DNA from: a virus
Length of the DNA: 20,277 nucleotides
Reading direction: 5' to 3' (one strand)
Virus record (IMG/VR): IMGVR_UViG_3300033148_002343
Coordinates: 1 to 20,277 of that record
Part shown: positions 1,802-19,637 of the stretch, one piece after another
How positions within the stretch are numbered: position 1 is the stretch's first letter
Layout: each line of letters begins with the position of its first letter
Program-made: the position numbers and the translations under genes
The notes under the pieces: generated by a model
Told to the model about the DNA's origin: nothing
What the model saw: only the letters and a program-made list of their open reading frames with translations
The model's database searches: none

Positions 1802-1821
1802 AAGAGGTGGAGGTATTGACA

Positions 1822-2343
1822 GTGGTAGATAGAGAAGAATTACTAGAGTTAAGGGGGCAAGGGAAAAGCTATCAGGAAATAGGTAATATTTGTGGGATAA
1901 GTAGGCAAAGGGTGCATCAGATATTATCCCCTAAATATACTGCGGGGGGATGGAGAAAGAGAGATAAGAATGATACTCCGCAAAGTTTAAGGGGGTTAGG
2001 TAAATTTAATGGCAACTGGAAAGGTGGCAGGTATATAGACAAAGGCAGATATATCCTTGTAAAGCTTCCGCCTGATGATTTCTTTTATCCGATGGCTGGT
2101 GTAAGGGGATATGTTCTTGAGCACCGCTTGGTGGTGGCTAAGGCATTGGGAAGGAATTTACATCGGTGGGAAATAGTCCACCACAAGAATGGTGTTAAAG
2201 ATGATAATAGGAAGAGAAACCTTGTGCTTCTTACAGAAGCAGGACATAATCAGATAACCCATTTTGAGAAGATACTTGCAAGGCAGGAGAAACGGATAGG
2301 GTATTTAGAAGGAGTGTTATCTAGGAATCGTATTGATTATTAA
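1822..2343 (+). CDS. HNH endonuclease with N-terminal helix-turn-helix
   Basis: This product of 173 residues is a probable site-specific DNA endonuclease of the HNH type. Residues about 16-35 (SYQEIGNICGISRQRVHQIL) form a typical helix-turn-helix. After a GKFNGNWKGG linker the HNH core follows: EHR at about 100-102, then VHHKNG at about 119-124 and DDNR...NL. This gives the paired His of the first HNH strand and the downstream Asn. The C-terminus is a short coiled coil. GTG 1822 is chosen because GGAGG lies eight bases upstream and the promoter ends at 1801; an earlier GTG at 1807 would be at or before the transcript start. It may be a homing endonuclease or phage-borne mobile gene. A role in packaging is less likely at this distance from terminase. 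Confidence 0.85.
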   Translation: MVDREELLELRGQGKSYQEIGNICGISRQRVHQILSPKYTAGGWRKRDKNDTPQSLRGLGKFNGNWKGGRYIDKGRYILVKLPPDDFFYPMAGVRGYVLEHRLVVAKALGRNLHRWEIVHHKNGVKDDNRKRNLVLLTEAGHNQITHFEKILARQEKRIGYLEGVLSRNRIDY

Positions 2344-2772: not shown

Positions 2773-2905
2773 TGGTATCCTACTATGGTATATTCTCTAT
2801 TACGAAGGGTTAGTTGACATAATGGATGTCTTATTAAGTATTGTTTAACCGAACCCCGACATTTAAGTTAAAAAAGTCCAGATAGGGGGTTAAGAAACGA
2901 TATGT

Positions 2906-2911
2906 TATAAT
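2906..2911 (+). promoter_or_regulatory. Possible promoter of the small-gene operon
   Basis: TATAAT at 2906-2911 in the context ACGATATGTTATAATAG resembles the other -10 elements here, with TG one base further away than the ideal extension. No good -35 is seen 17 bases upstream. It stands before the run of plus-strand genes starting at 2968. Confidence 0.45.
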
Positions 2912-2967
2912 AGAAGGAGGAGATTAAATATAGAAGCCCGATATATCTTAATGAAGAAGTTAAAGAA

Positions 2968-3246
2968 ATGAGTCCATACAAAGACAAGGAGACAGCGAAG
3001 AAGGCGAGCAAGGAAAGGATGAGGAGGTTTAGGGGCGTAACATCGGGCGTAACAAATGAGGTTGTAACGGAGAAGGGTGTAACAAAATATCCAGCGATAA
3101 TCCACGCATTGGTAGACCCTGAAAAGAGAAAGAAATTAGAAAGAATACACCAATCATTAAAGAATCACGGGGTAGTAGATGAAGTCCACTTTGGGATGGG
3201 GTGGGCGACCTTTGGTGATATAGGACAGATGTTAGAGGTAACGTAA
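2968..3246 (+). CDS. Basic phage protein with repeated GVT motif
   Basis: The 92-residue product begins MSPYKDKETAKKASKERMRR, the lysine/arginine-rich opening seen in many small phage proteins. A low-complexity part follows where V-T is repeated (GVTSGVTNEVVTEKGVT, residues about 23-39). The C-terminal half (ALVDPEKRKKLERIHQSLKN onwards) looks helical and folded. The start is preceded only by a weak GAAGAAG, which itself lies in a tiny reading frame ending ATGA at this start, so translation may be coupled to it. The stop overlaps the next start as TAATG. No enzyme motif is visible. The basic N-terminus suggests DNA or RNA contact, an inference only. Confidence 0.65.
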   Translation: MSPYKDKETAKKASKERMRRFRGVTSGVTNEVVTEKGVTKYPAIIHALVDPEKRKKLERIHQSLKNHGVVDEVHFGMGWATFGDIGQMLEVT

Positions 3247-3440
3247 TGGTAACTGATATACAAAGGGAAAGAATACTAACTCACTTCTGTAATTTATATG
3301 AGAGCAGAGAAAAAGAGATAGTCTGTGCTCCTTTAGTATATGGAGACTTGTTGCTAATTGCAGAGAAGATGTCTCTACCCGTAGAGGATGTAGCTATGGT
3401 GCTTTGTAATGAGTTAGATAGTATATTAGGGGTAACATAA
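3246..3440 (+). CDS. Small hypothetical protein
   Basis: The 64-residue product begins MVTDIQRERILTHFCNLYES and is probably all helical. It contains PLVYGDLLLIAEKMSLPVED, which could form a helix-turn-helix-like pair, though the fit is too weak to claim. The ATG uses the last A of the preceding stop (TAATG), so it is probably translationally coupled. It ends LGVT, echoing the VT-rich neighbour. No family is recognised. Confidence 0.6.
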   Translation: MVTDIQRERILTHFCNLYESREKEIVCAPLVYGDLLLIAEKMSLPVEDVAMVLCNELDSILGVT

Positions 3441-3452
3441 GAAGCGTAAATA

Positions 3453-3644
3453 ATGACTAAACAAGAAGAGATAAAGAAAGCGGCAAAGAATATACTTTTA
3501 CATATGCGCTTGACCCCAGAGTTGACCCCTGATGATGTGGTTGATAAAATCCTTACCAAGCGGTCTGAATTAGGTGCGGTAATAAAGGTAGAATACCCTG
3601 AATGTTCTATGATAGAACCACTAATAGATACAGAGGCAAATTAG
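3453..3644 (+). CDS. Small hypothetical protein
   Basis: The 63-residue product begins MTKQEEIKKAAKNILLHMRL. An amphipathic N-terminal helix is followed by LTPELTPDDVVDKILTKRSE, probably a second helix, and a short acidic tail. It starts 12 bases after the previous gene with only a weak purine-rich ribosome binding site. It is co-directional with and close to its neighbours, so it is probably part of the same operon. I cannot assign a function. Confidence 0.55.
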   Translation: MTKQEEIKKAAKNILLHMRLTPELTPDDVVDKILTKRSELGAVIKVEYPECSMIEPLIDTEAN

Positions 3645-3729
3645 ACGGGTTATGTAGACCATTAGTATGATAGCTGAAGAAGAAAGGTGGGGGGAACCCC
3701 CTTCTTATGACTCTTTGGAGGTGTATGCT

Positions 3730-3969
3730 ATGGGAACTTATCTTATGCGAAAATGTAACAGGTGCGGACTAGAGGAGGAGATATTTGAGGATATACCTAT
3801 ACGAGTAGGCAATGGTGGCTTTCTATCTCTCTGTGATGGGTGCAGGAAGGGATATCATACCCTCAAGTATGATTTAGAGAAGAGAATGGACGAGACGTTA
3901 GAGAAGTGGTTAGAGGAAGGTGGGGCATACAAAAAGCCCTCTATAGCGTTTAAGGATGAAATAGATTAA
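3730..3969 (+). CDS. Small zinc-ribbon protein
   Basis: The 79-residue product has two Cys pairs: CNRC at residues about 9-12 and CDGC at about 35-38. This is a CxxC...CxxC layout expected to bind one zinc ion. The C-terminal part is an acidic, probably helical stretch. ATG 3730 is chosen because GGAGG lies eight bases upstream. The frame opens earlier at ATG 3667, but no ribosome binding site precedes that codon. Zinc ribbons of this size in phages often bind nucleic acids or regulate transcription; which one applies here cannot be told from sequence. Confidence 0.65.
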   Translation: MGTYLMRKCNRCGLEEEIFEDIPIRVGNGGFLSLCDGCRKGYHTLKYDLEKRMDETLEKWLEEGGAYKKPSIAFKDEID

Positions 3970-3979
3970 GGAGATAAAT

Positions 3980-4135
3980 ATGGAAGCACAAGAATTAAAG
4001 GACAAATATTTGAGGGAAGAGGTCAAAGGCAAGGTGGGGGTTATAGCTATTGGGGAAGATTACTGGTATCACGTTCACAATAATGAAGAAATCCCTAAAG
4101 ATTTAACGATAGCCTTACACCCAAGAGTTGATTAG
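3980..4135 (+). CDS. Very small acidic hypothetical protein
   Basis: This short gene encodes 51 residues beginning MEAQELKDKYLREEVKGKVG and ending ALHPRVD. Its AAGGAG ribosome binding site stands six bases before ATG and follows the previous stop almost directly, so co-translation is likely. A helix (AQELKDKYLREE) is followed by strands (GVIAIGEDYWYHVH), a compact pattern. No family is recognised. The reading frame is short, but its ribosome binding site and spacing support it. Confidence 0.6.
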   Translation: MEAQELKDKYLREEVKGKVGVIAIGEDYWYHVHNNEEIPKDLTIALHPRVD

Positions 4136-4213
4136 TCTAAATAGAACTTACTGGTGGCGGAATAGGTGGAACTCCCAGCCTTAAATGGTAGAGGTTAATA
4201 GAGGTTCATATGA

Positions 4214-4573
4214 ATGTCAAGAAATATTCAGACATATGTTGCGAGACGAATGGAATTTTGGGGCACTAAAGCCTTCGGAAATATTAAGCCCTCATATGCA
4301 GCGTATGGTATAGTATGTAATGCCAACGATTTGCATAAACTATTGTGCCATATAGAGGAACACAATGAGGATTGCGAAGCTGGATGCGTAGAGGTAGAAT
4401 TGGCACTCGGAGATATAATAGCAATGTGTCAGAGAATTTGCACTATGTTACATCTAAATATTAATGACATGCACTTTGACGGATGTGTTCGGATAGCAGA
4501 GAAATCAAGGGAAATAGTCGAAGGAGATACATCCCACGATGATGACCCGCGATATATTCTCAAAAATAGATAA
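4214..4573 (+). CDS. Hypothetical protein, faint MazG-like pattern
   Basis: The 119-residue product begins MSRNIQTYVARRMEFWGTKA. Residues about 45-100 look like a helical bundle: two adjacent Glu (HIEEH, 48-49), then EVELALGDIIAMCQRI with acidic residues at 60, 62 and 66, then LHLNINDM. The spacing of EE and ExxxGD recalls the metal-binding helices of MazG-type nucleotide pyrophosphohydrolases, but the canonical EExxE is not complete, so the call is tentative. Seven Cys residues in a cytosolic-looking protein of this size are notable. GAGG nine bases upstream supports the start. The gene lies between two tRNA-like fragments (see findings). Confidence 0.5.
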   Translation: MSRNIQTYVARRMEFWGTKAFGNIKPSYAAYGIVCNANDLHKLLCHIEEHNEDCEAGCVEVELALGDIIAMCQRICTMLHLNINDMHFDGCVRIAEKSREIVEGDTSHDDDPRYILKNR

Positions 4574-4690
4574 CTGGTGCAGGGTGCAAATCCCTAGTTA
4601 GTAAGTGAATAGAATAATATAGGTGAGTCCTTCGGGGCGGGAGAAATAGTCCCTGCTAAATTGGGTGGGCTTTAGGGGCTAGGAGAAGAT

Positions 4691-4846
4691 ATGCCATATA
4701 AGAGGTCTGGGAAACAGATATTACACAAAAAGGGTGGGAAGTGGAAGGTCAAGCAAACGGCAACCAGTATTGCCAATGCCAAGAAAGCCCTTAGATTGTT
4801 AAGGGGTATAGAACACGGGATGGTAGTTAGGGGGAAAGGGAAATAA
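4691..4846 (+). CDS. Small lysine-rich phage protein
   Basis: The 51-residue product begins MPYKRSGKQILHKKGGKWKV and ends MVVRGKGK. It is extremely basic, with a short strand-strand-helix pattern (GGKWKVKQTATSIANAKKAL). Small basic phage proteins that open MPY(K/R) and carry a GGKW turn are familiar from many phage genomes, but their role is not established. AGGAGA upstream supports the start. The last 20 bases overlap the 3' end of the convergent HNH gene. The gene is short, but its composition and ribosome binding site make it credible. Confidence 0.65.
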   Translation: MPYKRSGKQILHKKGGKWKVKQTATSIANAKKALRLLRGIEHGMVVRGKGK

Positions 4847-5267
4847 TTTTAGCTTTAAGCCTTTCATTTTCTTGTTCCAATTCCTGAACCCGCTTAAAGA
4901 GGATAAAATGTTTACGAGAATGGTTTTTCTTATCAAGCACATAGAGGTTTTCGGGGCGGTTATCAAGTCCGTCGCCATTGATGTGATGCACCTCCTCTCC
5001 GCTGGTAAGGGGTCTGCCCAAGATTTGCTCCATTACGTATCTGTGTTCTGCAACTCGGCGGCGAGAACCTCTAATATAGCGATAAGACATACCCTTCTTA
5101 TTTGTGTAAACAACAGTGCCACCCTTGTAAGCAGGATTGTTCTTCCCCGACTGGATTTGCGATGGGAGTTTGGAACGACACTTAATACTACAAGTTTTCT
5201 TTGTGTTTATAGCAGAGGGAGAGACCTTAATTATGTTATCGCAAAATAAGCATTTTCTTAATATCAT
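4827..5267 (-). CDS. HNH endonuclease with N-terminal zinc finger
   Basis: This 146-residue product is a probable HNH homing-type endonuclease. Cys 6, 9, 26 and 30 (CLFC...CSIKC) form a CxxC-CxxxC zinc finger. Next come a GKNNPAYKGG linker and the HNH core: EHR at 74-76, VHHING at 93-98, LDNR at 101-104, ENL at 106-108 and KKNH at 113-116. Residues 122-140 form a coiled coil (VQELEQENERLKAKI). AAAGGGGG before ATG 5267 fixes the start, and an own promoter lies at 5287-5292. The gene runs against its neighbours and overlaps the end of the gene at 4691, consistent with mobile insertion. HNH proteins near terminase can assist cos cleavage, but the orientation makes a mobile role more likely. Confidence 0.85.
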   Translation of the reverse strand: MILRKCLFCDNIIKVSPSAINTKKTCSIKCRSKLPSQIQSGKNNPAYKGGTVVYTNKKGMSYRYIRGSRRRVAEHRYVMEQILGRPLTSGEEVHHINGDGLDNRPENLYVLDKKNHSRKHFILFKRVQELEQENERLKAKIISLSP

Positions 5268-5286
5268 TTATATTCCCCCTTTACTT

Positions 5287-5292
5287 ATTATA
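5287..5292 (-). promoter_or_regulatory. Extended -10 promoter of the zinc-finger HNH gene
   Basis: On the minus strand the sequence reads ACGTGGTATAATAAG, with TATAAT preceded by TGG. No good -35 is seen 17 bases upstream. Transcription would begin a few bases before the AAAGGGGG ribosome binding site of the gene starting at 5267. Confidence 0.6.
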
Positions 5293-5327
5293 CCACGTTG
5301 CAAACCGCAAAACGGAATGAAACCCAA

Positions 5328-5492
5328 ATGATTGCCATAGAAGAAAAAGGTCGCTTTAACATAATTCAATATGACCTCAATCGTTTAGACCAGAAGTTTC
5401 TTGATATTATAGAAAAAGAAACTGACCTTAATTTAATGCAGATACTCACACTGAAACAACAGATGTGGATGGTTTACTGTAGAAATAATTGA
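5328..5492 (+). CDS. Small hypothetical protein
   Basis: The 54-residue product begins MIAIEEKGRFNIIQYDLNRL. A beta hairpin (IAIEEKGRFNIIQYD) is followed by helices (QKFLDIIEKETDLNLMQILTL). ATG 5328 is preferred over a TTG at 5298, which would overlap the opposing HNH promoter; neither has a strong ribosome binding site. The stop overlaps the next start as TGATG, which supports both reading frames. No function is recognised. Confidence 0.5.
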   Translation: MIAIEEKGRFNIIQYDLNRLDQKFLDIIEKETDLNLMQILTLKQQMWMVYCRNN

Positions 5493-5671
5493 TGAAGAGA
5501 CAAGGTTTTACCAAGCCATATTTTCTCGACCCTCAAGTGATGGCGTGGGTTGAGTCTTGTGCATCTTGTGCGATTGAAGGCAATGAGTGGGCAATTGAGA
5601 TGTGCAAATTATGGCGGGAGGGGAAACACGAAGAGTTTGTTAAACAATTGGAGGATTGCCGGGGTGTATAA
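5492..5671 (+). CDS. Small hypothetical protein
   Basis: The 59-residue product begins MKRQGFTKPYFLDPQVMAWV and is acidic in its second half. ATG 5492 uses the last base of the preceding TGA, so translation is probably coupled. Four Cys are present (SCASCAIEG, EMCKLW, EDCRGV), but their spacing does not make a standard zinc ribbon. It is the last gene before the terminator-like hairpin and the terminase genes. No family is recognised. Confidence 0.55.
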   Translation: MKRQGFTKPYFLDPQVMAWVESCASCAIEGNEWAIEMCKLWREGKHEEFVKQLEDCRGV

Positions 5672-5677
5672 GGTTGT

Positions 5678-5719
5678 GCTGAAACCTAGTGGATAACCCT
5701 TAAGCAAGGTTTTTTCAGC
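5678..5719 (+). terminator. Possible weak terminator before the terminase genes
   Basis: A short stem (AACCCTT/AAGGTT with one bulged C, four-base loop) ends in a run of six T at 5710-5715. A wider imperfect stem GCTGAAACCT/AGGTTTTTTCAGC encloses it. The inner stem is weak and partly overlaps the T-run, so termination may be partial or conditional. Confidence 0.4.
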
Positions 5720-5735
5720 CCCAGCAAGATATTAA

Positions 5736-6242
5736 ATGAAAGCAAAGACAAGAAATAAACATATAGAGCAATTAGCTCAATGGTTAGCTTTGCCTGAAGA
5801 TGAGCGAGAACCAAAGACATTAGTAGATTGGTCAAAACAACACGGGGTTACTGATGTTACTGCGTGGAACTGGAAAAAACAAATAACAGTCAAACCCGAA
5901 TTGAGCGAAGTTGAACTATTCAAGATGCGTCTTTACAAAGAAGCTACTAAAGTTGGTGCCCCTGCCAAGACGATGGAATTATGGGCAAAGTTAAACGGAT
6001 TATTTGAAGATAAGACAGAGAGGAAGGAGTTTGAGTTTAAGCCCAGCGACTATATTAAGAACAGAGAAAAAGCCCGAAGAGAGCTTGAAGAAGAAGGCTT
6101 TGGAAGTAGAGAAGTGCAGTCAATCCCCTCACTACTTCCTGACGAAGTTTTGCTACATTCAGGACAGGGCGAAGAAGCAGACGGTGAAGTGGCAGGCGTG
6201 GGAGAGCCTTCTAGACCTGCTGACCTTATTCCAACAGCATAA
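5736..6242 (+). CDS. terS: Probable terminase small subunit
   Basis: This product of 168 residues lies directly before the large terminase gene, where the DNA-recognition subunit usually stands. Residues about 20-50 (REPKTLVDWSKQHGVTDVTAWNWKKQ region) fit the helix-turn-helix that TerS proteins use to bind packaging sites. Residues about 55-120 look helical and charged, as in an oligomerising core. From about residue 121 the frame reads through the large-subunit gene in another phase and looks like low-quality sequence (PSLLPDEVLLHSGQGEEADG). The true functional C-terminus may therefore be near residue 120, or ribosomes may change frame there. Identification rests on position and HTH pattern, not on a strong signature. 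Confidence 0.65.
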   Translation: MKAKTRNKHIEQLAQWLALPEDEREPKTLVDWSKQHGVTDVTAWNWKKQITVKPELSEVELFKMRLYKEATKVGAPAKTMELWAKLNGLFEDKTERKEFEFKPSDYIKNREKARRELEEEGFGSREVQSIPSLLPDEVLLHSGQGEEADGEVAGVGEPSRPADLIPTA

Positions 6243-7530
6243 AGAACTAATCATAGGCAAGGCACGACAAAATGGCATATCGTGGTTGGTGTGTGGTTAT
6301 TGTTTGTGGTTATGCCTTTTTAATGAGAATGTTAAGGTCTTATTTCTTTCACAGGGGGAATCGGAGGCGTGGGACTTGGTGGCAAAGTGTCGTTTTATAT
6401 GGAATCATTTGCCTGATTTCTTAAAAGAACCTATAGGTCATACCTCTAAGGGGTTTTTGGACTTCCCTGGGAACGGGAGCGAGATAAGAGCCTATCCCTC
6501 AACGGAAAAGGCGGGCAGGTCAACGGATGCTTCTATCGTTATAAGGGATGAGTTGGAGTTTCACCCCTATGGGGCGGCAAACTTCTCTGCTATTGGTCCG
6601 ACAATAGATGCTGGAGGAGCACAGTTGATTGAGCTTTCAACTAGGGATAAATTAAAGAAAGACAGCCACTTTATGAAGCGGTTTAGGTCTGCTTTAGGGG
6701 GAGGGAGTTCATACCCCGTTTTTCTTGGGTGGCGAGCACGACCCAATAGAGAAGAGGGGATGACACAAGATGAGTGGTTTCAGAAACGGATTAAAAGTAA
6801 ATACTCTGAAATACAGGTAGAGCAGGAATACCCTGAAACATTAGACGAATTTTTAGGTGAGGTTGTATCAAGTGCTTTCTTTGATATTACGGCATTAAAT
6901 CATATGTTGAGTGATTTGAAGAAACCGATAGACCACGAATTAGGCAGGAAGTATCCCTTGGTTATGGTTTATCAAGATAGGGTGGTGGGAGAAAGATACT
7001 GTTGTTTTACCGACCCCTCTGATGGCAAAGATGACCCTCACGCTTTGGGTGTAATGAAGATTAAGACTGGAACCGTGGTTGCCATATCTCACGGAAAGAT
7101 ACCTGCTGATGAGGTGGCGAAGATACACGATGCGGTATGCCGTTATTATAATAATGCCTATAACACGTTTGAAGCCAATGCCTCTGCTGGTGGGAAGATG
7201 GCAGCTACCATAGTTAATTTAGGCACGCCCAATATGCACATTCAGAAAAAAGATAGGGTGGGTTGGTTTACAAGCAATATCTCAAAAAGAGATACCTACT
7301 ATGGGTTAGAAGAAGCTATAAGATTATATCAGATTAGCATACCAAACAGGGAAGCGATAGAAGAATTGAGAAGTGTATATCAAGTAAAGTCCAAAAGTGG
7401 CAAATTAAAATTCCACAGCGAGGGACATAACGACTTTGTTATTATGCTAGCTGGTTTGTGGGCAATAAGCAAGGTTATGCCCAGAGGTGGGGTTAAGTCG
7501 TTTTCATTCCACTATAAGGAGAGTCAATGA
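6085..7530 (+). CDS. terL: Terminase large subunit (packaging ATPase-nuclease)
   Basis: TerL powers DNA translocation into the procapsid and cuts the concatemer. Numbering from an earlier TTG at 6004, the motifs are GKARQNGIS (85-93, Walker A-like), IVIRDELEF (178-186, Walker B with catalytic DE), then the RNase H-like nuclease acids: D337 in TDPSDGKDD, E390 in NTFEAN and D477 in GHNDFV. All are in the expected order and spacing. No in-frame ATG precedes the Walker A motif. I place the start at TTG 6085 because the product then begins close to the first plausible TerL residues (LKKKALEVEKCSQSPHYFL); TTG 6004 and 6100 are alternatives and none has a good ribosome binding site. The gene overlaps terS out of frame and its stop overlaps the portal start as ATGA. 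Confidence 0.93.
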   Translation: MKKKALEVEKCSQSPHYFLTKFCYIQDRAKKQTVKWQAWESLLDLLTLFQQHKELIIGKARQNGISWLVCGYCLWLCLFNENVKVLFLSQGESEAWDLVAKCRFIWNHLPDFLKEPIGHTSKGFLDFPGNGSEIRAYPSTEKAGRSTDASIVIRDELEFHPYGAANFSAIGPTIDAGGAQLIELSTRDKLKKDSHFMKRFRSALGGGSSYPVFLGWRARPNREEGMTQDEWFQKRIKSKYSEIQVEQEYPETLDEFLGEVVSSAFFDITALNHMLSDLKKPIDHELGRKYPLVMVYQDRVVGERYCCFTDPSDGKDDPHALGVMKIKTGTVVAISHGKIPADEVAKIHDAVCRYYNNAYNTFEANASAGGKMAATIVNLGTPNMHIQKKDRVGWFTSNISKRDTYYGLEEAIRLYQISIPNREAIEELRSVYQVKSKSGKLKFHSEGHNDFVIMLAGLWAISKVMPRGGVKSFSFHYKESQ

Positions 7531-9233
7531 TAACTAGAGAAGAAATTAAAAAGCTGGAAAAATATTTAATAGATGACTTTCACGGTGCTAGAGTTAGTCA
7601 ACAGAGAGAGGAACAGCAGTTCTATGATGATAAATTTCCTGTTCCAATGATTAAACCCCCTCAATATTTATCCAGAACGGGGACATCAAAGTGGCTTATT
7701 GACGGACCCGCTGCCCATATTATAACTAGAAACCCACAAGTATTTGTAGACCCCAAGAGGGAAACTGACAAGGCTAGGGAGTCAGCTAACAAGGTTAATC
7801 TACTAGAAAACCATTGGGTTAAAAGGATTTTAATGCAATCCCCCCAACCATTTAAGGAACACGTTAAGGATTTGCTTCTGCGTGGCGAGGGGTGGATACA
7901 TCCTGTATTAAATGAAAACTGGGACAAGAGTCCTGATATATTGCCAGTTCTATTTCTTATTCCTGACCCATTAAACATCTTTGCCTCACCCGAAGAAGAA
8001 TACGGTATTCCCAAACAGGTGATTGTTAGATATGAGAGGTCTCCTTATTTAGTTGAGATGATGTATCCTAAGTGGTCTAATCCTAAAAACGCTGGGAGTA
8101 ATAAAAGAAAGAAAACTGTTGAGTGGTTGGAGTATTGGGATAAGGATGTTAGGTATTTTGAAGCTGATGGAGTTCCAGTTCTTAAAAACGAGATAAACCC
8201 CAATATTTATGGCTTTGTTCCCTTTATTCATTCCTACTCTGGGTTTGGGAGAAGGTCGCCTGGCGGCAATCCTGAAACTTTAGTTGTAGGCAGGATAAAT
8301 AAAGTCAAGGATTTACTCATTCAGGAATGTGCTATTAACAGTGATATTGATAGCACACACCATTTATTCGCCCACCCTCACAGAACGCTTATTGTTCCAG
8401 CAGGAACAGAGTTTAACGAAGAGGAATTTAAGGGGCACGCTGATTTTGGGGCTGGTATTTTGAGTGTTGTATTCCTACCAGCAGGGGCTACGTTTGACGA
8501 GGGTCAGAGGCTTGAGCCTTCAGAGAAGGCGTTTATTTTAATGCAGTCCATTCGTGCTAGAATTTTTACAGAAGCACCTCCGATAATGTCTGGCTTACCG
8601 CAGGGTTCAAGCGGTAGGCAAGAGGATATAGTTGGGGCTAACTTTATCAGGCGGTTTGACTCCATTGTAGAAGAAACAGAAAAAGCGTTTGCTAAAGCAC
8701 TTGACCAGGGAAGGAATATATTGAAGAAAGTTCCCACTTGGTTGCCAATAACACAATGGCTTGAGAAACCCGAAGGCGGTAGTAAGGAGATTATAATCAC
8801 TGAAAAGGATATAGATGCCTGTGCCCCTTCAAGAATAGAACTAAAGTCTGCTGACCCAATTGAAGATGACAGAAAACTAATGGCTGGTAGGGCTTTATAT
8901 GAAGGGGGGATAATTAACTGGGAAGAATTTTTGGTTGAGTATGCTGGTTATACCCCCGATAAGGCTAAAAAGATAATGCAGAAAACTATAGCTGAAAAGG
9001 TTGTAATGACTAATCCTCTTATTTTGGAACTTATCGCAAGGAAGGCTATGGAGCAGTTGGGGATGACTGAAGAGATAAATATATTAGAACAAGAGGTGGC
9101 ACAACAGACGGGGGGAGTTGGTTCGCAGGGGGGTCCGCCCAGGACTCAAAACATCCGAACTCCTCAAGGTAGGGAGATGATGGATGTGGCGTTGACGCAA
9201 AGGGGCGTGCGAGGACCCGCAAGGCAGGTATGA
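7527..9233 (+). CDS. Portal protein
   Basis: The 568-residue product follows terL with an ATGA overlap and an AAGGAGAG ribosome binding site, the normal place for the dodecameric portal that forms the DNA channel and docks terminase. The N-terminus is charged and helical. Segments such as SRTGTSKWLIDGPAAHII and FVPFIHSYSGFGRRSPGGNP suit the wing and clip parts, and a later stretch (GLPQGSSGRQEDIVGANFI onwards, with long helices to ALDQGRNILKK) resembles the stem-to-crown helices of portals. The C-terminus is Gln/Gly/Arg-rich and probably disordered. Length lies in the range of P22- or T7-like portals. The assignment rests on position, size and overall pattern rather than a diagnostic motif. 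Confidence 0.85.
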   Translation: MITREEIKKLEKYLIDDFHGARVSQQREEQQFYDDKFPVPMIKPPQYLSRTGTSKWLIDGPAAHIITRNPQVFVDPKRETDKARESANKVNLLENHWVKRILMQSPQPFKEHVKDLLLRGEGWIHPVLNENWDKSPDILPVLFLIPDPLNIFASPEEEYGIPKQVIVRYERSPYLVEMMYPKWSNPKNAGSNKRKKTVEWLEYWDKDVRYFEADGVPVLKNEINPNIYGFVPFIHSYSGFGRRSPGGNPETLVVGRINKVKDLLIQECAINSDIDSTHHLFAHPHRTLIVPAGTEFNEEEFKGHADFGAGILSVVFLPAGATFDEGQRLEPSEKAFILMQSIRARIFTEAPPIMSGLPQGSSGRQEDIVGANFIRRFDSIVEETEKAFAKALDQGRNILKKVPTWLPITQWLEKPEGGSKEIIITEKDIDACAPSRIELKSADPIEDDRKLMAGRALYEGGIINWEEFLVEYAGYTPDKAKKIMQKTIAEKVVMTNPLILELIARKAMEQLGMTEEINILEQEVAQQTGGVGSQGGPPRTQNIRTPQGREMMDVALTQRGVRGPARQV

Positions 9234-9514
9234 TGAAAGAAAATACATTTGATGGAGTCTTGGCTGAAGTAACTAATATAGTTAATTCTGTTAGTGGTTT
9301 TTTGGGGACAGAGTATAAGAATGTGAAACCATTTAATAAAAGAAAGCGTTCTGTAGATGAACGATTGGCTGAATATGAGCAGTATAAACTCAACCCACAA
9401 AAGATGATTGATTTAATGGGAACTATGGGAGTTACTCAAACTAATCAATACATTGGGGAAATGGAACAATTGCTAGAAAGGAGGAGGCAACGAAATGCCC
9501 AAATATTATACTGA
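9233..9514 (+). CDS. Small virion-region protein
   Basis: The 93-residue product begins MKENTFDGVLAEVTNIVNSV. The N-terminal third is hydrophobic-helical (LAEVTNIVNSVSGFLGTEY). The C-terminal half is helical and charged, ending MEQLLERRRQRNAQILY. ATG 9233 gives a TGATG overlap with the portal stop and better spacing from AAGGCAGG than the adjacent ATG at 9230. Its last 20 bases contain the ribosome binding site of the next gene. Small proteins here in podovirus-like genomes may be connector or accessory proteins, but I do not recognise a family. Confidence 0.65.
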   Translation: MKENTFDGVLAEVTNIVNSVSGFLGTEYKNVKPFNKRKRSVDERLAEYEQYKLNPQKMIDLMGTMGVTQTNQYIGEMEQLLERRRQRNAQILY

Positions 9515-10685
9515 AGGGGAAGCTGGTAAAAGGTGGGATAAATATCCCCGTGAGTTTGGTGAGTGGTTAATTGCCGCATTTGGGCAAAAGATTGGTGGGG
9601 AGATATGGAGTAGAATAATAAATAGGGAGGACCCAAGCGATAATCCTCTATATGTAGATTGGGTTGCTTCGGAGGGAGCGGGGCAACCAGTTCGGTATCC
9701 CTCAATAAGCGAGGCGGAATTTAGGCGTAGCCTCGGGTCTTATATGGGTAGCCTTGAGGCACTTGGTTATATTAAGTCTGGAGAGATGGAAGAGGCTATT
9801 GCCGAAATAGAAGGGATGGTTGATATAAGGGGTTTGTCGCCACAAACACCTCTTTATGGTGTTTTAGCTTCTCGTAGAATTACCCCTGAATGGATAGCAG
9901 CAGAACGTAGGGAAGCGGAAGTTGAAAAGGGTAAGAAGGGTCTTGAATGGATAGAGGCTGCCAGAAAAGCTGAGGAGTCAAGGTGGGAAGTTGGGGTTCG
10001 TGAGAGAGAAGCAGAGGCACAGCGGGCTTGGTGGGGTGGGCAAACACAAGCATTTGGTTTAGCGCAAGTTCAAGCAGAGAGGGCAAGGCAAGCTGATATT
10101 GCCAGACAATCTATGTGGCAACCATCAGGGCTTCCTGAGGAACCACAGAATTGGATTGAAAGGTTCTTTGATGAGAATATGCCTGGATATTTAGAGCAGG
10201 TGAGACAACAGTGGGAGGAAGAAGAGTATCTAGGACAGCGAAGAGAAAGATTGGGCGAATTAGAGACTGAAGTTCTAGGGGCATCTGAACAATTAACGAT
10301 GCCAGGGCAAGCTACAACCCTTTCTAGCCGTGTGCAGCAACTCTCCAAATTAAGAAAAGAATTACTTGAAGTAGAAACTGAGTTAGGTAGGTTGGAAGTA
10401 GAAGAGACAGAACAGCCTAGAAGACCAGTGGGACCGCCTGTCCCCTCTTGGTTGACTGAATATGCACCACAATTAAAGGCAGGGCAACCCTTGCCCGAAA
10501 CAGGACGACTTGGAATACCTAGTGGTCAATTAGTAGCTAGAACCACACCTACTCAATGGGCACAACTAGCAGGCGTATCTAGGCATTGGGATGCTAGAAC
10601 TCCACAAGATTTATTGTTTGAGGCACAAAGAAGATGGCCAACTAAAGCACCATCTCCCAGAGGATGGAGAACCCCAAGACAATAG
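9495..10685 (+). CDS. Virion-region protein with long charged helices
   Basis: The 396-residue product begins MPKYYTEGEAGKRWDKYPRE. The first 130 residues look folded and Trp-rich. Residues about 130-220 are a continuous, Glu/Arg/Ala-rich helical region (EAEVEKGKKGLEWIEAARKA, QVQAERARQADIARQSMW). A further coiled-coil-like stretch lies near 245-300. The C-terminal 90 residues are Pro/Arg-rich and probably flexible. AGGAGG upstream fixes the start, inside the end of the previous gene. It precedes the 1225-residue gene by nine bases, so the two probably act in one structure. A minor head or internal virion protein is a reasonable guess; no known family is recognised. Confidence 0.7.
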   Translation: MPKYYTEGEAGKRWDKYPREFGEWLIAAFGQKIGGEIWSRIINREDPSDNPLYVDWVASEGAGQPVRYPSISEAEFRRSLGSYMGSLEALGYIKSGEMEEAIAEIEGMVDIRGLSPQTPLYGVLASRRITPEWIAAERREAEVEKGKKGLEWIEAARKAEESRWEVGVREREAEAQRAWWGGQTQAFGLAQVQAERARQADIARQSMWQPSGLPEEPQNWIERFFDENMPGYLEQVRQQWEEEEYLGQRRERLGELETEVLGASEQLTMPGQATTLSSRVQQLSKLRKELLEVETELGRLEVEETEQPRRPVGPPVPSWLTEYAPQLKAGQPLPETGRLGIPSGQLVARTTPTQWAQLAGVSRHWDARTPQDLLFEAQRRWPTKAPSPRGWRTPRQ

Positions 10686-10694
10686 GAGAATTAA

Positions 10695-13600
10695 ATGGCA
10701 GAACCGTGGAAGTGGGAACCTGAAAATACGGGGTTAGAAGAGAAATATACCGACCTCTGGAATAAGTCAAAAAGATGGGTGGCAGCTTTATGGGAACCCA
10801 AAGGACCTCCCGCAAGAGAACCCGTTGATTATAGACCTATATCCCCAATTACAGCAGAATTAGAAGGGGCAAAACTTGGTATAGAAACTCTTCCCCAGAC
10901 TGAATTTGGTCAGAAGTTGGGCGAAATTTGGGATGTTATAGGGAAAAGGCTTTATTCTGGTTTTGCTAATATAGGACAACTCGGCAAGGATTATCTTACA
11001 ACCACATTACCCAGAGCAGTGGCTATTAGTCAGCAATATGAACCAGGTTTGCTTTTATTACCCGAAGAGCAGGAAAGGCGACAGAAGGAAATCTTACAGG
11101 AAGCTCGCATTGCAATTGATATAAAGTATCAAGAAAGCCAGCAAAAGTATCAAGAGTGGATAAAAGAACATCCCGAACTGGCTGTAAAGCCAGAATGGAC
11201 AAGGGATGTAATAAGCACTATTAGAGATAAACCAGAGGTGGCAAAAGACCCTGCATATTGGGCTTATCTTATATCTGATTCGGCAGCCTTTTCCTTATCG
11301 GCTTTGGCTGCTGGTGGAGTTGTTATGCTTGCTACGGGGGGTAATCCTGTATTGGGTGCTATGGCAGCTGGTGTGGTTGCTATTCCCATAGAGTCCCAGG
11401 ATTTATATAATGATTTAATTCGCAGTGGAGCTACCCCCGACGAAGCTACTGCCATTACATTACCAGTTGGTTCGTTTATTGGAATGATTGAAGCTGCTAG
11501 TGATTTACCTTTGTTGGGAGCATTGGCTAGACCAGTAAAGAATTTACTTACCAAAACTCTGATGAGGGAAGTTGGTAGAGCGACTTGGAAAACTCTATTG
11601 GCTAGGGGTGTTAAAACCTTTACTCAGGTTGAAGCTGCTGAAGTAATGGAAGAAATTGCCCAAGATATTATTCATAACGCAACGGCTAAAATATTTGATA
11701 AAAACCGCCAAGTATTTGAGAATATCCCTGATGTAGCGGTAAGAGCGGCTATCGCTACACTTCCATTTGGCGTTCTTGGTGCTGGTGGTGAGATAGTGGG
11801 CGGGATTACACAACAAGGTGAACCTACAGTTCCAACAGGGATAACCCCAGAAATAATTCCTGAAATGGAAGTTCCCGCTAAAGTTGCAAGAGCGATTGTT
11901 CCTGTTCCCAGAGAGGTTACTATAAAGCCAGCACCCGAAGCACCCGTAGTAAACACCTATGTTCCCATTAGTAGTCTAAAACAAGAAGAAATTCAGGAAC
12001 TTGGCGTTAAGGGGCTTGTGGGTAAGTTTAAGAAGCTGGATATTAAGACTCTCCCATTAGAATACAAGCAACAAGTTAAGGATATTTTGGATGCTTATGA
12101 CATTGGTTTTAGAACCAATAAAACTATTAGCAGACGTGAGTCTCTACTCGCACATATTGATAGACTAGAAGCGGAGGGTATGCCAGTTGAAATACCAGAG
12201 AAGTATATTGAGATGGCAAGCAAAGTGCCATTGCGTGAATTATCTTTCAATCAACTTCAAATGCTTTATGATGAAGCGAGTGCTGCTGTTAAACTTGGTA
12301 GATTAAAGAATAAACTAATTAAGATTCAAGCCAATAGAAGGGTGGAGAGTGCTGTTAATGATTTGATTGACCACATTGGCAAGCCACCCCCATTGCCAGA
12401 AGCAATTACTGAAGCGAGTTTAAGAGAGGGTCGGTGGCATAAGGTCGGAGAGCAAGCTAAGGGGTTTATTAGTCGCTCCGATAGAGTGGAGCGTATCTTC
12501 TTCCGTATGGATGGCTATAGAGAAACTGGTTTAATGCAAGATGTTTTCTATAAGCCTATTAACGAAGCAACTAATCAAAAGTTGCAGGGTATCTATACTA
12601 TGATGGATGAATTTAGAAATTTGGTTAGGGAGAGCAATATTGATTTGGGTTCAATAATCAGTAATGAGGAAGATATAGCAGGGCTAACACTTACATCACA
12701 AGAAAAGATTGGTGTATATCTTTCTAGTCTGAATAATGACAACCTACTCCATATGGAGCACGGAAATAATTACACCGATACGCAGATTAAAGAAATTGTT
12801 AATAGTCTAACCGCCCAAGAACGAATATTGGCTGATTGGCTCCATAGTTACTTTCAAAGAGATGGTGAGGCTATAAGCAAAGTCAGAACGCAGGTTGAGG
12901 GGAAACCGCTTTCTATTGTAGATGATTATTTCCCTATTATGTTGAGATGGGAGGGTAAAATAGCTCCTGAATTTAGTCTGCAACAGCAGATGGCACAAGA
13001 ATCCATATATCGTTTCACGGCTCAATGGGCTTCTTCCAAAATAACTAAACGATTCTTGAGGGAGAGAAGCCATAAGGCGATGCAACCCGTAAATCTAAAT
13101 GCAGTAGAGATTTTTATAAGGCATTTACAGAATGTAGAACACTATAAAGCCTTTGCTCCAGCAGTGAGGGATTTACAGTTGATAGTGCATAATGCCCAAT
13201 TTAAGAGAGCCTTCGTGGTTAAAGAGGGAGCGGAAACATATAAGGTTATTGATAAATGGTTAAGGCAAGTTGCCGAAACCGACCCCTTACGAATTACATC
13301 TAGTGGAGAAATGCTGGGTAGATTTTTAAGGGTAAACGCAACTGCATCTATATTGGGTGTTAATCTGACTGTTGCCCCCAAGCAGTTCGCTTCATACTTT
13401 ATTGGTATGGCTGAAATAGGCGAACTTCCAGCAATAAAGGGGCTTTTTACATATGTAGCACACCCCCAAGAAACGGGCCAATTGATTAAGAAATACTCCC
13501 CTCAGATGCACCAAAGGACATTTGAAAGAGAGATTGCCGAAGCAAGACAGATGCGGAAATTAAAAAGCAAGGTAATGAATAAGATTTCCCCCAAAGAAGC

Positions 13601-14372
13601 CTTTATGATTTTAACTACTACTTGTGATAGGATAACAGTTCGTTCTTTGTGGCGTGGTGCATTTGACGACTTCTTGTCTCGCAATCCAGGGATGATGACC
13701 GAAGCAGCTGAATATGCAGACAGAGGCATCCGGCGCACCCAACCAATATTTAGTATTAAGGATGTGGCTGAATATTACCGCTCTGGCGAGTTTATGAAAG
13801 CTGTTACTCGTTTTACCAACCAGTTAAATCAAAACTGGAATTTCTTTAGGCACGAATTATTGGGGCGATATACAACTAAGCAATTATCCTTCCCCCAACT
13901 GGTATTAAAAGCAATAGAATCCTTTGTTATCCCTGCCTTAATAATCGGGGCTATATCCCGTAGCCGCCCAGCCAAGAATGCGAAGGAACTACTATCCGAT
14001 TTCGGAGCAATGGCGTTAGCTATGATTCCCGTAATGGGGACTTATTTATCGGGAGGGGTGCGGGGCTATTATGAAAATGCAGGAATTGTTACCACCCAGG
14101 CGTTAAGGGAGATGCAGACTATTGCCTATAACATAGCAGAAGCAGAATGGGTAAGAGCCTTGCAGGATTTCCCAGAATTGGCTGGTTATCTACTGGGTGT
14201 TCCTATCACACAGCCCAAGAGAACACTAAATGCAATTATAAGATTAGCCCAAGGCAAGTCAGATGATTGGCTTGAACTTATCTGGGGGCAATATACGAGA
14301 GAGAAGGCTGCGAGAGAAGACGAGACCCCTTCATCTGCGAGAAAAGCAGCTCGCAGAATACTTGGAAGATAG
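10695..14372 (+). CDS. Very large protein, possible internal or ejected virion protein
   Basis: The 1225-residue product has no signal peptide. Hydrophobic, Ala/Gly-rich stretches lie at residues about 192-232, 255-278 and 348-372, and near the C-terminus at about 1077-1087 and 1103-1122, while the middle is helical and hydrophilic. This layout, in a giant protein of the head module, recalls internal virion proteins ejected with DNA, and also the large polyvalent proteins of some phages whose C-terminal domains have no known activity. No Walker, peptidoglycan hydrolase or polymerase motif was found by eye. The start follows GGAG; the same context (GGAGAATTAAATGGC) precedes the capsid gene. 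The protein ends with a basic tail (SSARKAARRILGR). Function is inferred from size, position and hydrophobicity. Confidence 0.75.
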   Translation: MAEPWKWEPENTGLEEKYTDLWNKSKRWVAALWEPKGPPAREPVDYRPISPITAELEGAKLGIETLPQTEFGQKLGEIWDVIGKRLYSGFANIGQLGKDYLTTTLPRAVAISQQYEPGLLLLPEEQERRQKEILQEARIAIDIKYQESQQKYQEWIKEHPELAVKPEWTRDVISTIRDKPEVAKDPAYWAYLISDSAAFSLSALAAGGVVMLATGGNPVLGAMAAGVVAIPIESQDLYNDLIRSGATPDEATAITLPVGSFIGMIEAASDLPLLGALARPVKNLLTKTLMREVGRATWKTLLARGVKTFTQVEAAEVMEEIAQDIIHNATAKIFDKNRQVFENIPDVAVRAAIATLPFGVLGAGGEIVGGITQQGEPTVPTGITPEIIPEMEVPAKVARAIVPVPREVTIKPAPEAPVVNTYVPISSLKQEEIQELGVKGLVGKFKKLDIKTLPLEYKQQVKDILDAYDIGFRTNKTISRRESLLAHIDRLEAEGMPVEIPEKYIEMASKVPLRELSFNQLQMLYDEASAAVKLGRLKNKLIKIQANRRVESAVNDLIDHIGKPPPLPEAITEASLREGRWHKVGEQAKGFISRSDRVERIFFRMDGYRETGLMQDVFYKPINEATNQKLQGIYTMMDEFRNLVRESNIDLGSIISNEEDIAGLTLTSQEKIGVYLSSLNNDNLLHMEHGNNYTDTQIKEIVNSLTAQERILADWLHSYFQRDGEAISKVRTQVEGKPLSIVDDYFPIMLRWEGKIAPEFSLQQQMAQESIYRFTAQWASSKITKRFLRERSHKAMQPVNLNAVEIFIRHLQNVEHYKAFAPAVRDLQLIVHNAQFKRAFVVKEGAETYKVIDKWLRQVAETDPLRITSSGEMLGRFLRVNATASILGVNLTVAPKQFASYFIGMAEIGELPAIKGLFTYVAHPQETGQLIKKYSPQMHQRTFEREIAEARQMRKLKSKVMNKISPKEAFMILTTTCDRITVRSLWRGAFDDFLSRNPGMMTEAAEYADRGIRRTQPIFSIKDVAEYYRSGEFMKAVTRFTNQLNQNWNFFRHELLGRYTTKQLSFPQLVLKAIESFVIPALIIGAISRSRPAKNAKELLSDFGAMALAMIPVMGTYLSGGVRGYYENAGIVTTQALREMQTIAYNIAEAEWVRALQDFPELAGYLLGVPITQPKRTLNAIIRLAQGKSDDWLELIWGQYTREKAAREDETPSSARKAARRILGR

Positions 14373-14397
14373 TTGACATAACGACTTATGGTATAAT
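14373..14397 (+). promoter_or_regulatory. Extended -10 promoter for the scaffold-capsid block
   Basis: TATAAT at 14392-14397 is preceded by TGG (TGn extension). TTGACA at 14373-14378 is only 13 bases away, too close for a normal -35. The promoter starts inside the two bases after the preceding stop and should drive the scaffold-capsid genes. It shares the ACGA-then-TGGTATAATA pattern with other promoters in the window. Confidence 0.65.
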
Positions 14398-14405
14398 AGA
14401 TATAA

Positions 14406-14448
14406 GGGCAAGTATGCCCAACTAGAGTGCCATCCAAGGACGGCATAC
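14406..14448 (+). promoter_or_regulatory. Scaffold leader with alternative RNA hairpins
   Basis: GGGCA (14406-14410) can pair with TGCCC (14415-14419), and GTGCC (14427-14431) with GGCAT (14442-14446). Alternatively GTATGCC (14412-14418) pairs perfectly with GGCATAC (14442-14448). The two states exclude each other, and the second ends two bases before the AGGAGG ribosome binding site (14451-14456). Confidence 0.5.
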
Positions 14449-14464
14449 TAAGGAGGACATTAAA

Positions 14465-15208
14465 ATGGTAAAAGAGATTGTGGAAGGGAAAGAGACTCAG
14501 GCAGAAGAGACTCTTTCCGCAGAGCAAAGAATTAAGGCTTTGGAACAAGCAAAGGCCGAATCAGATGCTAAAGCGACTGAAAAGGAAAAAGGTTTCAAGA
14601 CGCTTCAGCAACAATTCAATGAAGTTTCCAGAGAACTTCAACGTGCCAAAAGGGTTTTGGATGACCGAGAGTTTGACAGGGAATACCAAAAGGCTTTGGC
14701 TGCTATTATCGCTGAAACAAAGGGGCAATCTGAGGAGGAATTTGACTCCACTGTTAAGGCGAAGAAAGGCGACCTCACAAAACTATTTGATGACAGGATT
14801 AGTGAGATAGAGAAAAAGAGGGAAGCAAGCCGAAGGCAGGCAGAATTTGAGGAAAAGATTACCAGTTACCAGAAAAAGGTAGAAGCGGCTGGATTGACTG
14901 AAGAGGATGACGAATACTGGGATATTAGAGATTGCGTTCTCCGAAGACAATACCAAAGAGCAGATAATAAATTAAGGAAACTGGCAGTAAAGAAAGAAAC
15001 CCCTAAAGAAGAAGAAATTCAGAAGATGGTTGATGAAAGGGCTAAAGAAAAAGCGTTGGAGATATTGAAGGAAAAGGATGTATTAACCCAAGAAACTGGT
15101 GGACCAACGGGTGCCAGTGATGTCCCTATTAAAATAGGAGATTTCCGAAAAGCCTCTGATGAGGCGAGGACGCCACAGGAGCTTCTGGATAGGTATAAGA
15201 AGAAATAA
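14465..15208 (+). CDS. Probable capsid scaffolding protein
   Basis: The 247-residue product is rich in Lys, Glu and Gln and is nearly all predicted helix. Long coiled-coil-like stretches lie at about residues 15-70 (AEQRIKALEQAKAESDAKAT onwards) and 105-145. It lies upstream of the capsid gene, where scaffolding proteins are normally encoded; these form the internal core that guides shell assembly and then leave or are degraded. The C-terminus is Gly/Thr-rich then basic (ELLDRYKKK), a common capsid-docking type of tail. AGGAGG upstream and a dedicated promoter support strong expression. The call is based on composition and position, not on a family signature. Confidence 0.75.
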   Translation: MVKEIVEGKETQAEETLSAEQRIKALEQAKAESDAKATEKEKGFKTLQQQFNEVSRELQRAKRVLDDREFDREYQKALAAIIAETKGQSEEEFDSTVKAKKGDLTKLFDDRISEIEKKREASRRQAEFEEKITSYQKKVEAAGLTEEDDEYWDIRDCVLRRQYQRADNKLRKLAVKKETPKEEEIQKMVDERAKEKALEILKEKDVLTQETGGPTGASDVPIKIGDFRKASDEARTPQELLDRYKKK

Positions 15209-15487
15209 ATGATTCAAATACCACCGAGGTATAGGTTTAAGCCAAAAGAGGGCGGCAGACCTATTCTGATTAGGAGAATACACTGTGGGCAGTGCAATCA
15301 CGTTCTTGCTGAAGAAGTAGGCGATTTGCACAAGACTGCTATTGAGTGGTTTTCAATAACCCGAGAGGGTTTATGGATTAAGGGTAAATGGTGGGGCAAC
15401 TCATATATTTGCCCATATTGTGGGAAGAAGGGAAATCTACCAATGGATAAACCATTAACGGAGGGATGTTATGGCAACCAAGACTAA
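15209..15487 (+). CDS. Zinc-ribbon protein in the capsid module
   Basis: The 92-residue product has CGQC at residues about 26-29 and CPYC at about 68-71, a CxxC...CxxC zinc ribbon, with a Trp-rich middle (GLWIKGKWWGNSYI). The N-terminus is basic (PPRYRFKPKEGGRP). It begins directly after the scaffold stop (TAAATG) and its end overlaps the next gene. Its place among head genes suggests a small virion or assembly factor, but a regulatory protein is equally possible. No family is recognised. Confidence 0.65.
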   Translation: MIQIPPRYRFKPKEGGRPILIRRIHCGQCNHVLAEEVGDLHKTAIEWFSITREGLWIKGKWWGNSYICPYCGKKGNLPMDKPLTEGCYGNQD

Positions 15488-15845
15488 AAAGAGGAATATA
15501 GTCAAGGAGGCGTTTAATAAGCTTGAGGGTCAGACTGGACGAGTAGCTTCTGGCATAAAAGCAAATCAAGGTGCGGAAATCTTTACAAAGGATAGAAGTA
15601 AACCAGAACCAGAGCAACTCACACCTTTTGACCAAATAAAGAAACGGGTTTATATTGACTTGCTCCTGAAGTGGATAAGCCCAACAAAACTATCTGCAAA
15701 ATCCACACCAGAGCAGGACAAGGGTATGCTTGTTAAGAAGATGGAAAAGCAAACACTACCCGACTTGAGTAGATTCTTTGAATTAGAGTTACCTGTTGAG
15801 ATACAGGTGCAAATACAGAATAAATACAGGGACTTGAGTCCTTAG
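15471..15845 (+). CDS. Hypothetical protein before the capsid gene
   Basis: The 124-residue product begins MATKTKKRNIVKEAFNKLEG with a basic N-terminus. It continues with a helical C-terminal half (FDQIKKRVYIDLLLKWISPT, LVKKMEKQTLPDLSRFFELE). GGAGGG upstream fixes the start, 17 bases inside the end of the zinc-ribbon gene. It ends 10 bases before the capsid gene. Small genes in this place can encode decoration or head-completion proteins, but no recognisable motif is present. Confidence 0.65.
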   Translation: MATKTKKRNIVKEAFNKLEGQTGRVASGIKANQGAEIFTKDRSKPEPEQLTPFDQIKKRVYIDLLLKWISPTKLSAKSTPEQDKGMLVKKMEKQTLPDLSRFFELELPVEIQVQIQNKYRDLSP

Positions 15846-15855
15846 GGAGAATTAA

Positions 15856-16713
15856 ATGGCTACAGGCGCAACTACATTTATGGACAATACCACTCAGGAT
15901 GAATATATTCCTGAAATTTGGAGTCCGTATGTTTTAGAAGAAAGGGAAAACAACTTACTATACGCTACCCTTTGCGACACGAAATATGAAAAGGGATTAA
16001 CCAAAGGTGATGTAATTCACGTCAACGATGTGCTCAATCTGGCAGCGAGAGCGAAAACCGAAAATAGTGCTGTTGACTATGAGACGGTTACTGTTACTCA
16101 ATTAGACATCAACATTGACCAATACTACTATGCTGCTATTGCAGTTGAAGTTGAAACCGATGCTCAGGCACTACAAGACCAAGCTGCACTATGGGCACCT
16201 AAGCTTGGTTATGCACTAGCTTTGCAGATTGATGATACTCTGGCGGGATTGCCTGACAGCTTTAGTCAAACAGTAGGGACGCTGGCAACAGCAACTACTG
16301 TTGACAACTGGATTAGGGCAGTGCAATACCTTGATGATGCCAATGCACCAGACGAGGATAGGAGTGCTGTGGTATCACCTGCGGAATGGGGTAGCTTGAT
16401 TAAACAGGATTTCTTCACTCGTATGGAGTATAAGGAGTCCGTGGGGCAATTATCGGCTAAGGCAAAGAGAGGCTTTTTCGGCTCTGCTCTTGGTGTGAAC
16501 TTTTATAAGAGTTCAAACACTGAAGGAGACAACACCAATGGGCACGACAACACTCTCTTCCATAAGTCGGCTATGGCTTTGGTAAGGCAGATAGCCCCAA
16601 CAACCGTTAGCCAATTTGACATTGATTATCTAGCAAGGAAGGTTGTTTCTTACGAACTGTTTGGAACAAGAGAGATGCGAGATGACCACGGCGTTTGGGT
16701 TAAAGGATTATAA
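15856..16713 (+). CDS. Probable major capsid protein
   Basis: The 285-residue product begins MATGATTFMDNTTQDEYIPE. The opening IPEIWSPYVLEERENNLLYA, the strand-rich GDVIHVNDV, the TVTQLDINIDQYYYAAIAVE strand region, the long helix QALQDQAALWAPKLGYALAL and the late VSPAEWGSLIKQDF segment match the pattern of HK97-fold major capsid proteins, including those of P22-like phages. The length is short to normal for that fold. AGGGAGA before ATG gives strong translation, and it follows the scaffold block. It is followed by a terminator-like hairpin. The fold assignment is from pattern and position; no structure-based comparison was possible. Confidence 0.88.
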   Translation: MATGATTFMDNTTQDEYIPEIWSPYVLEERENNLLYATLCDTKYEKGLTKGDVIHVNDVLNLAARAKTENSAVDYETVTVTQLDINIDQYYYAAIAVEVETDAQALQDQAALWAPKLGYALALQIDDTLAGLPDSFSQTVGTLATATTVDNWIRAVQYLDDANAPDEDRSAVVSPAEWGSLIKQDFFTRMEYKESVGQLSAKAKRGFFGSALGVNFYKSSNTEGDNTNGHDNTLFHKSAMALVRQIAPTTVSQFDIDYLARKVVSYELFGTREMRDDHGVWVKGL

Positions 16714-16733
16714 ACCGCCAAAGAAAATAACAT

Positions 16734-16777
16734 AAGAACGGAGAGAGGGGGCGGATTAAATACCTTGCTCCGTTCTT
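16734..16777 (+). terminator. Terminator-like hairpin after the capsid gene
   Basis: AAGAACGGAG (16734-16743) pairs perfectly with CTCCGTTCTT (16768-16777) across a 24-base loop and is followed by TCT. The stem is strong but the loop is long and the T-run short. It may be a partial terminator or a 3' stabiliser that sets capsid mRNA above that of the fibre gene. Confidence 0.55.
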
Positions 16778-16791
16778 TCTAAAGGGAATAA

Positions 16792-19353: not shown

Positions 19354-19375
19354 ACATAATTTAGAAGGTTTTTCG

Positions 19376-19402
19376 GGGGGCTTCGCCTGAAAGTAAGCCC
19401 CC
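19376..19402 (+). repeat. Strong intergenic hairpin
   Basis: GGGGGCTT (19376-19383) pairs perfectly with AAGCCCCC (19395-19402) around an 11-base loop. It is followed by AAATTAG, not a T-run, so it is more likely an RNA stabiliser or processing stop than a simple intrinsic terminator. Confidence 0.55.
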
Positions 19403-19421
19403 AAATTAGAAAGGGGAAAGA

Positions 19422-19637
19422 ATGAAGAATATTAAGAAAATCCTAGAAGCACAATTAAAAGAGGTTGAGGAGCAATTCAGTCAGTTTGAACAGAGAAGAC
19501 AGGGGATTATTCAAAGTAGTCAAAAGCTACAGACTGAATTAAATGCTATCTTAACCGAGATGGCTCGTTTACAAGGCGAGCACAGGAGAATTACCAAACT
19601 ACAAACTGATTTTCAAGACGAGCCAAAAGAAAAATAA
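19422..19637 (+). CDS. Small coiled-coil protein
   Basis: The 71-residue product begins MKNIKKILEAQLKEVEEQFS and is one continuous predicted helix to about residue 62, with heptad spacing of L/I/F and many Gln/Glu (QSSQKLQTELNAILTEMARL). AAAGGGGAAAG before the ATG supports the start. It sits between two virion-like proteins. It could be a trimerisation or chaperone-like partner of the fibre protein, or a small regulatory helix; neither is shown. No family is recognised. Confidence 0.65.
   Translation: MKNIKKILEAQLKEVEEQFSQFEQRRQGIIQSSQKLQTELNAILTEMARLQGEHRRITKLQTDFQDEPKEK

What the first reader, a model, noticed from the sequence alone, without database searches (positions are those of the whole stretch)
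5736..6242. Large out-of-frame overlap of the terminase genes with no ATG for TerL
The small-terminase frame runs to 6242 while the large-subunit frame (+1 relative to it) is open from 6004. There is no in-frame ATG before the TerL Walker A motif, and the TTG candidates (6004, 6085, 6100) lack good ribosome binding sites. The TerS frame looks genuine only to about residue 120 and then degrades where TerL-like sequence begins. This fits TTG initiation by re-initiation, or a programmed +1 shift that makes a TerS-TerL fusion; an SD-like AGGAAGGAG at about 6022-6030 precedes a TTTG site.
Basis: partly seen in the sequence, partly recalled or inferred. Interest (0 to 1): 0.6.

Follow-up and report, generated by a model that had tools for sequence, protein, structure and literature searches.

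The report
Overlapping phage terminase genes, TTG start
Two neighbouring genes of a virus's DNA-packaging motor share about 200 bases read in two frames, and the second gene most likely starts at an ordinary but less common start codon (TTG) inside the first; its relatives show the same overlap, so it is real but of a familiar kind.

Summary
The overlap is real and not a sequencing artefact. TerS runs 5736-6242; TerL's frame, +1 to it, is open from 5995 to 7530 and has no ATG. The 14 nearest distinct TerL relatives (36-49% identical) all have TerS overlapping TerL in the same frame. Twelve have an ATG 71-85 codons before Walker A; one, like the window (codon -76), has only TTG with a good SD (-75). 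The window's TerS residues there cannot encode an ATG in the +1 frame. Given the TerS proteins, SD-preceded starts are over-represented (13 seen, 6.3 expected), as is an open TerL frame (15 seen, 6.6 expected). This favours independent internal initiation over a frameshift fusion or re-initiation. TerS folds to residue 121; its disordered tail is overprinted on TerL, and about 25 tail residues are more conserved than TerL coding explains. Lambda and T4 also overlap these genes (26 and 17 nt), so this is a long member of a known kind. No translation data exist.

The parts
5736..6242 (+). terS, small terminase subunit ORF, 168 aa, ATG start with no clear SD; helices to residue 121 (nt 6098), disordered tail 122-168
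   Evidence: ORF; predicted structure; relatives match PHROG terminase small subunit families, the window protein itself does not
6021..6029 (+). AGGAAGGAG, Shine-Dalgarno proposed for TerL, lying inside terS
   Evidence: duplex with anti-SD -7.6 kcal/mol
6031..6033 (+). TTG, proposed TerL start codon (MSLSPATIL...)
   Evidence: 76 codons before Walker A, where relatives have ATG at -71 to -85 or TTG at -75; best SD of the candidates
6031..7530 (+). terL, gp17-like large terminase subunit, 499 aa from 6031
   Evidence: phrog_2 and phrog_5989, T4 gp17 by sequence and by fold
6031..6242 (+). terS-terL overlap, 212 nt, terL in the +1 frame
   Evidence: conserved in 15 of 15 clade members
6099..6169 (+). 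part of the TerS tail under apparent dual-coding constraint
   Evidence: TerS-frame similarity above a TerL-preserving null, z 5.2 and 4.5 in the two windows
6170..6239 (+). last ~24 TerS codons, no sign of conservation; likely a passively open extension
   Evidence: z 1.0, few sequences
7527..9233 (+). portal gene, overlaps the TerL stop by ATGA
   Evidence: ORF; phrog_64

Best explanation
terS and terL are two separate genes with a long overlap. TerL is translated by internal initiation at TTG 6031, using AGGAAGGAG inside terS as its Shine-Dalgarno; TerS is translated in its own frame to 6242. There is no ATG because the TerS amino acids in the start zone cannot be coded with an ATG in the +1 frame (that needs Asn, Asp, His or Tyr followed by Gly, Ala, Val, Asp or Glu), whereas Phe-Glu pairs give TTG. 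The overlap probably grew when TerS stop codons were lost, so that a disordered TerS tail became overprinted on TerL. Shown by comparison: the overlap, its conservation in the clade, the enrichment of SD-preceded starts, the conservation of part of the tail. Inferred: actual use of TTG 6031, function of the tail, and how the overlap arose.
For: Same +1 overlap in all 15 distinct clade members. Start codon at -71 to -85 before Walker A in 14 of 15; L124 also TTG only, with AAGGAG. SD duplex of 6031 best of the four candidates. Given TerS proteins, SD-preceded starts 13 seen vs 6.3 +/- 1.7 expected, open TerL frame 15 vs 6.6, ATG 12 vs 8.0, and ATG impossible in the window and L124. Predicted TerL helix 14-31 counted from 6031 would be cut by starts at 6085 or 6100.
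Against: No expression data. 8.7% of TTGs at 2901-20000 have as good an SD, and a start with such an SD arises in 4.8% of synonymous TerS recodings. TTG 6004, 27 nt upstream, is not excluded. L113 lacks any ATG, GTG or TTG in the start zone, so a downstream start is possible in at least one relative.
Confidence: 0.8

Rival explanations
1. TerL is made as a TerS-TerL fusion by a programmed +1 frameshift in the overlap, for example at TTT-G (6030-6033) stimulated by AGGAAGGAG.
For: Both frames are open over the whole overlap; the +1 relation is constant in the clade; an SD-like element precedes TTTG.
Against: Twelve of 15 members have a TerL ATG, and SD-preceded starts are enriched beyond TerS coding. 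No stop codon follows the site and there is no spacer between SD and site; the only shift-like codons shared by the clade spell the TerL Tyr-Phe motif, downstream of conserved TerL-frame residues.
Confidence: 0.04
2. TerL starts at another codon: TTG 6004, or TTG 6085 / 6100 as a shorter protein.
For: Homology strong enough for BLAST begins only near the Lys-Cys motif. L113 has only a TTG at -62. TTG 6004 is in frame and upstream.
Against: SD duplexes are weak, -3.3, -1.7 and -2.1; 6085 and 6100 lie inside a predicted helix; most relatives start at -71 to -76.
Confidence: 0.14
3. The overlap is an assembly or sequencing error (one-base indel).
For: Single metagenomic record, no reads held; the last ~24 TerS codons show no conservation.
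Against: Same frame relation and overlap in 14 other distinct records; conserved TerS-frame residues extend past the point where TerL coding begins.
Confidence: 0.02

Closest known systems
Phage lambda nu1/A (NC_001416)
   Same: terS and terL adjacent and overlapping out of frame: nu1 191-736, A 711-2636, 26 nt
   Different: overlap about eight times shorter
Phage T4 genes 16/17 (AF158101)
   Same: terL of the same gp17 family; gene 17 begins inside gene 16 (96672 against 96688, 17 nt); internal in-frame gene 17 products are annotated
   Different: short overlap; gp17 has a longer N-terminus
Long +1 (phase 1) same-strand gene overlaps in bacteria and viruses (PMC2542354, PMC7017920)
   Same: downstream gene in the phase in which long overlaps are more numerous, explained by start codon frequency; 16% of reported viral overlaps are 50 nt or longer
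   Different: those are surveys; here one overlap is followed through a clade and both frames are tested

Membership tests
gp17-like terminase large subunit | sequence and fold match to T4 gp17 with ATPase and nuclease domains | tested here: met
   phrog_2 8e-22; PDB 3ezk 3.5e-13; Foldseek 3cpe 3.7e-29
terminase small subunit | adjacent upstream of terL, N-terminal helix-turn-helix, family match | tested here: inconclusive
   position and helical N-terminus fit; four of 17 homologues match phrog_24579 (4e-8), the window protein matches nothing; no significant PDB fold
overlapping same-strand gene pair with internal initiation | two frames both conserved, downstream gene with its own start and SD inside the upstream gene | tested here: met
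overlapping same-strand gene pair with internal initiation | measured translation from the internal start | not testable with these tools
   no expression data
programmed +1 frameshift fusion | conserved shift site with stimulators, in place of an independent start | tested here: not met
   no shared site apart from TerL Tyr-Phe codons; independent starts present and enriched

The most novel reading that the evidence does not exclude
The overlap is kept by selection because one stretch of DNA encodes, in two frames, both halves of a TerS-TerL contact: the TerS C-terminal tail and the TerL N-terminus, the parts that bind each other in P22 (PMC9611059). The interface would then evolve under dual-coding constraint, and the weak TTG start would help set the subunit ratio.
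Probability: 0.12. Interest if true: 0.6.

Novelty: new member of a known kind. Interest (0 to 1): 0.27.

Why it matters
It explains a gene that automatic annotation could start wrongly or truncate: the upstream protein's sequence forbids an ATG, so a TTG is used. It also shows a long, clade-wide dual-coding stretch at the ends of two proteins whose counterparts bind each other in P22, a tractable case for studying overprinting and terminase subunit ratio. It needs no new translation mechanism.

Tried and rejected
A single-sequence scan of viral contigs with TerL found nothing; relatives came through the head protein and portal, then alignments. TerS found no relative among annotated phages or by alignment scan. 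Pfam gave nothing for TerS or TerL. Foldseek of the TerS model gave no significant hit. Promoter and terminator scan, Rfam and tRNA searches gave nothing that explains the locus. Frameshift: shift-prone codons were listed across the clade and no convincing shared site was found. Stop-coupled re-initiation was rejected on distance (about 210 nt backwards). Tail openness alone is only suggestive for the window (P 0.07). dN/dS was not possible: no relative above 49% TerL identity was found. Literature searches showed no description of this overlap in the titles, abstracts and passages seen.

Full report
Observation. The window is the whole of a 20,277-base IMG/VR virus record. terS is an ATG ORF at 5736-6242. 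AGGAAGGAG (6021-6029) then sits at a usable distance. Its duplex energy with the anti-SD is -7.6 kcal/mol, against -3.3, -1.7 and -2.1 for the others; likely genes of the window range from -0.7 to -12.1. Of the TTGs at 2901-20000, 8.7% do as well, so this alone is modest evidence.

Relatives. A single-sequence scan found no close relative. Through the head protein and portal, then by alignment, 176 TerL-bearing sequences were gathered, 127 of them distinct. The nearest clade has 15 distinct sequences including the window (TerL 36-49% identical to it). In every one terS overlaps terL, always with terL in +1; the TerS stop lies between -169 and +20 nt of Walker A, the window's at -19. The window is a long but not extreme case (L120 overlaps further), and a sequencing slip is very unlikely. 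TerL starts fall 71-85 codons before Walker A: ATG in 12, only TTG in the window (-76 and -85) and in L124 (-75, with AAGGAG), and none in L113, which has a TTG at -62. In several relatives the ATG is written inside the TerS motif Ala-Asp-Asp/Glu.

Why no ATG. An ATG in the +1 frame needs a TerS codon ending in AT (Asn, Asp, His, Tyr) followed by one that starts with G. The window's TerS has no such pair in the start zone: synonymous recoding of TerS gives an ATG there with frequency 0.00, and the same holds for L124. Phe-Glu pairs supply the TTGs.

Mechanism. With the TerS proteins held fixed and codons drawn at random, SD-preceded starts in the zone were expected in 6.3 +/- 1.7 of 15 and found in 13; an ATG was expected in 8.0 and found in 12; an open TerL frame from -68 to -56 was expected in 6.6 and found in 15. 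This is what an independently initiated gene should look like. A +1 fusion is not needed, and the clade shares no shift site except codons at about -124 nt that spell the TerL Tyr-Phe motif. Re-initiation by ribosomes that finished TerS would need a backward move of about 210 nt. In the TerL model, counted from 6031, residues 1-13 are disordered and helix 14-31 follows; starts at 6085 or 6100 would cut this helix. TerL is gp17-like by sequence and by fold.

TerS tail. The TerS model has helices to residue 121 and then a disordered tail; the tail lies entirely over TerL coding. Holding TerL fixed and recoding, TerS-frame similarity exceeds the null at codons -78..-66 (z 5.3), -66..-54 (3.8), -54..-42 (5.2) and -42..-30 (4.5), and not at -30..-18 (1.0). 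Thirty-eight downstream control windows average 0.4 with a maximum of 3.8. So about 25 tail residues, to about nt 6169, look constrained, and the last ~24 codons do not. Limits: the relatives are distant, the sequences are not independent, and no close pair allows a two-frame dN/dS.

Comparison with the known. Overlapping terS-terL pairs are familiar: lambda nu1/A by 26 nt, T4 16/17 by 17 nt, SPP1 by AUGA (PMC6316719). Same-strand +1 overlaps are the commoner long type in bacteria, for which a compositional cause has been proposed (PMC2542354). TTG starts are ordinary in bacteria and phages (general knowledge). What is a little special here is the length, its persistence in a clade, and that the shared DNA encodes the TerS C-terminus and the TerL N-terminus, which bind each other in P22; in lambda the TerS C-terminal region binds TerL (PMC9611059). 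Whether that is why the overlap persists is untested.

Verdict. A real, conserved gene overlap with a probable TTG start at 6031; a frameshift fusion is not supported. Interest is modest.

Noticed in passing
L021/L022 (same TerL as L113; frame open from 2474 / 1196): TerL with no ATG, GTG or TTG where relatives start; ACG-ATT stands at the ATG position and the first usable codon is TTG 62 codons before Walker A.
   Followed up: partly
window 5736: The TerS ATG has almost no Shine-Dalgarno (-0.7 kcal/mol), unlike most other likely genes of the window.
   Followed up: no
L003, L004, L018: Mosaic relatives: major head protein 75-79% identical (L003, L004) or portal 59% (L018) beside TerL only about 30% identical.
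   Followed up: no
window 10695-14372: 1225-aa protein related to phrog_9880 and to Bbp10 of Bordetella phage BPP-1 and similar proteins of phages of about 40 kb, although TerL is gp17-like.
   Followed up: no
window 1807-2343 (+) and 4827-5267 (-): Two HNH endonuclease ORFs; the first also matches a sigma-70 region 4 / helix-turn-helix family.
   Followed up: no
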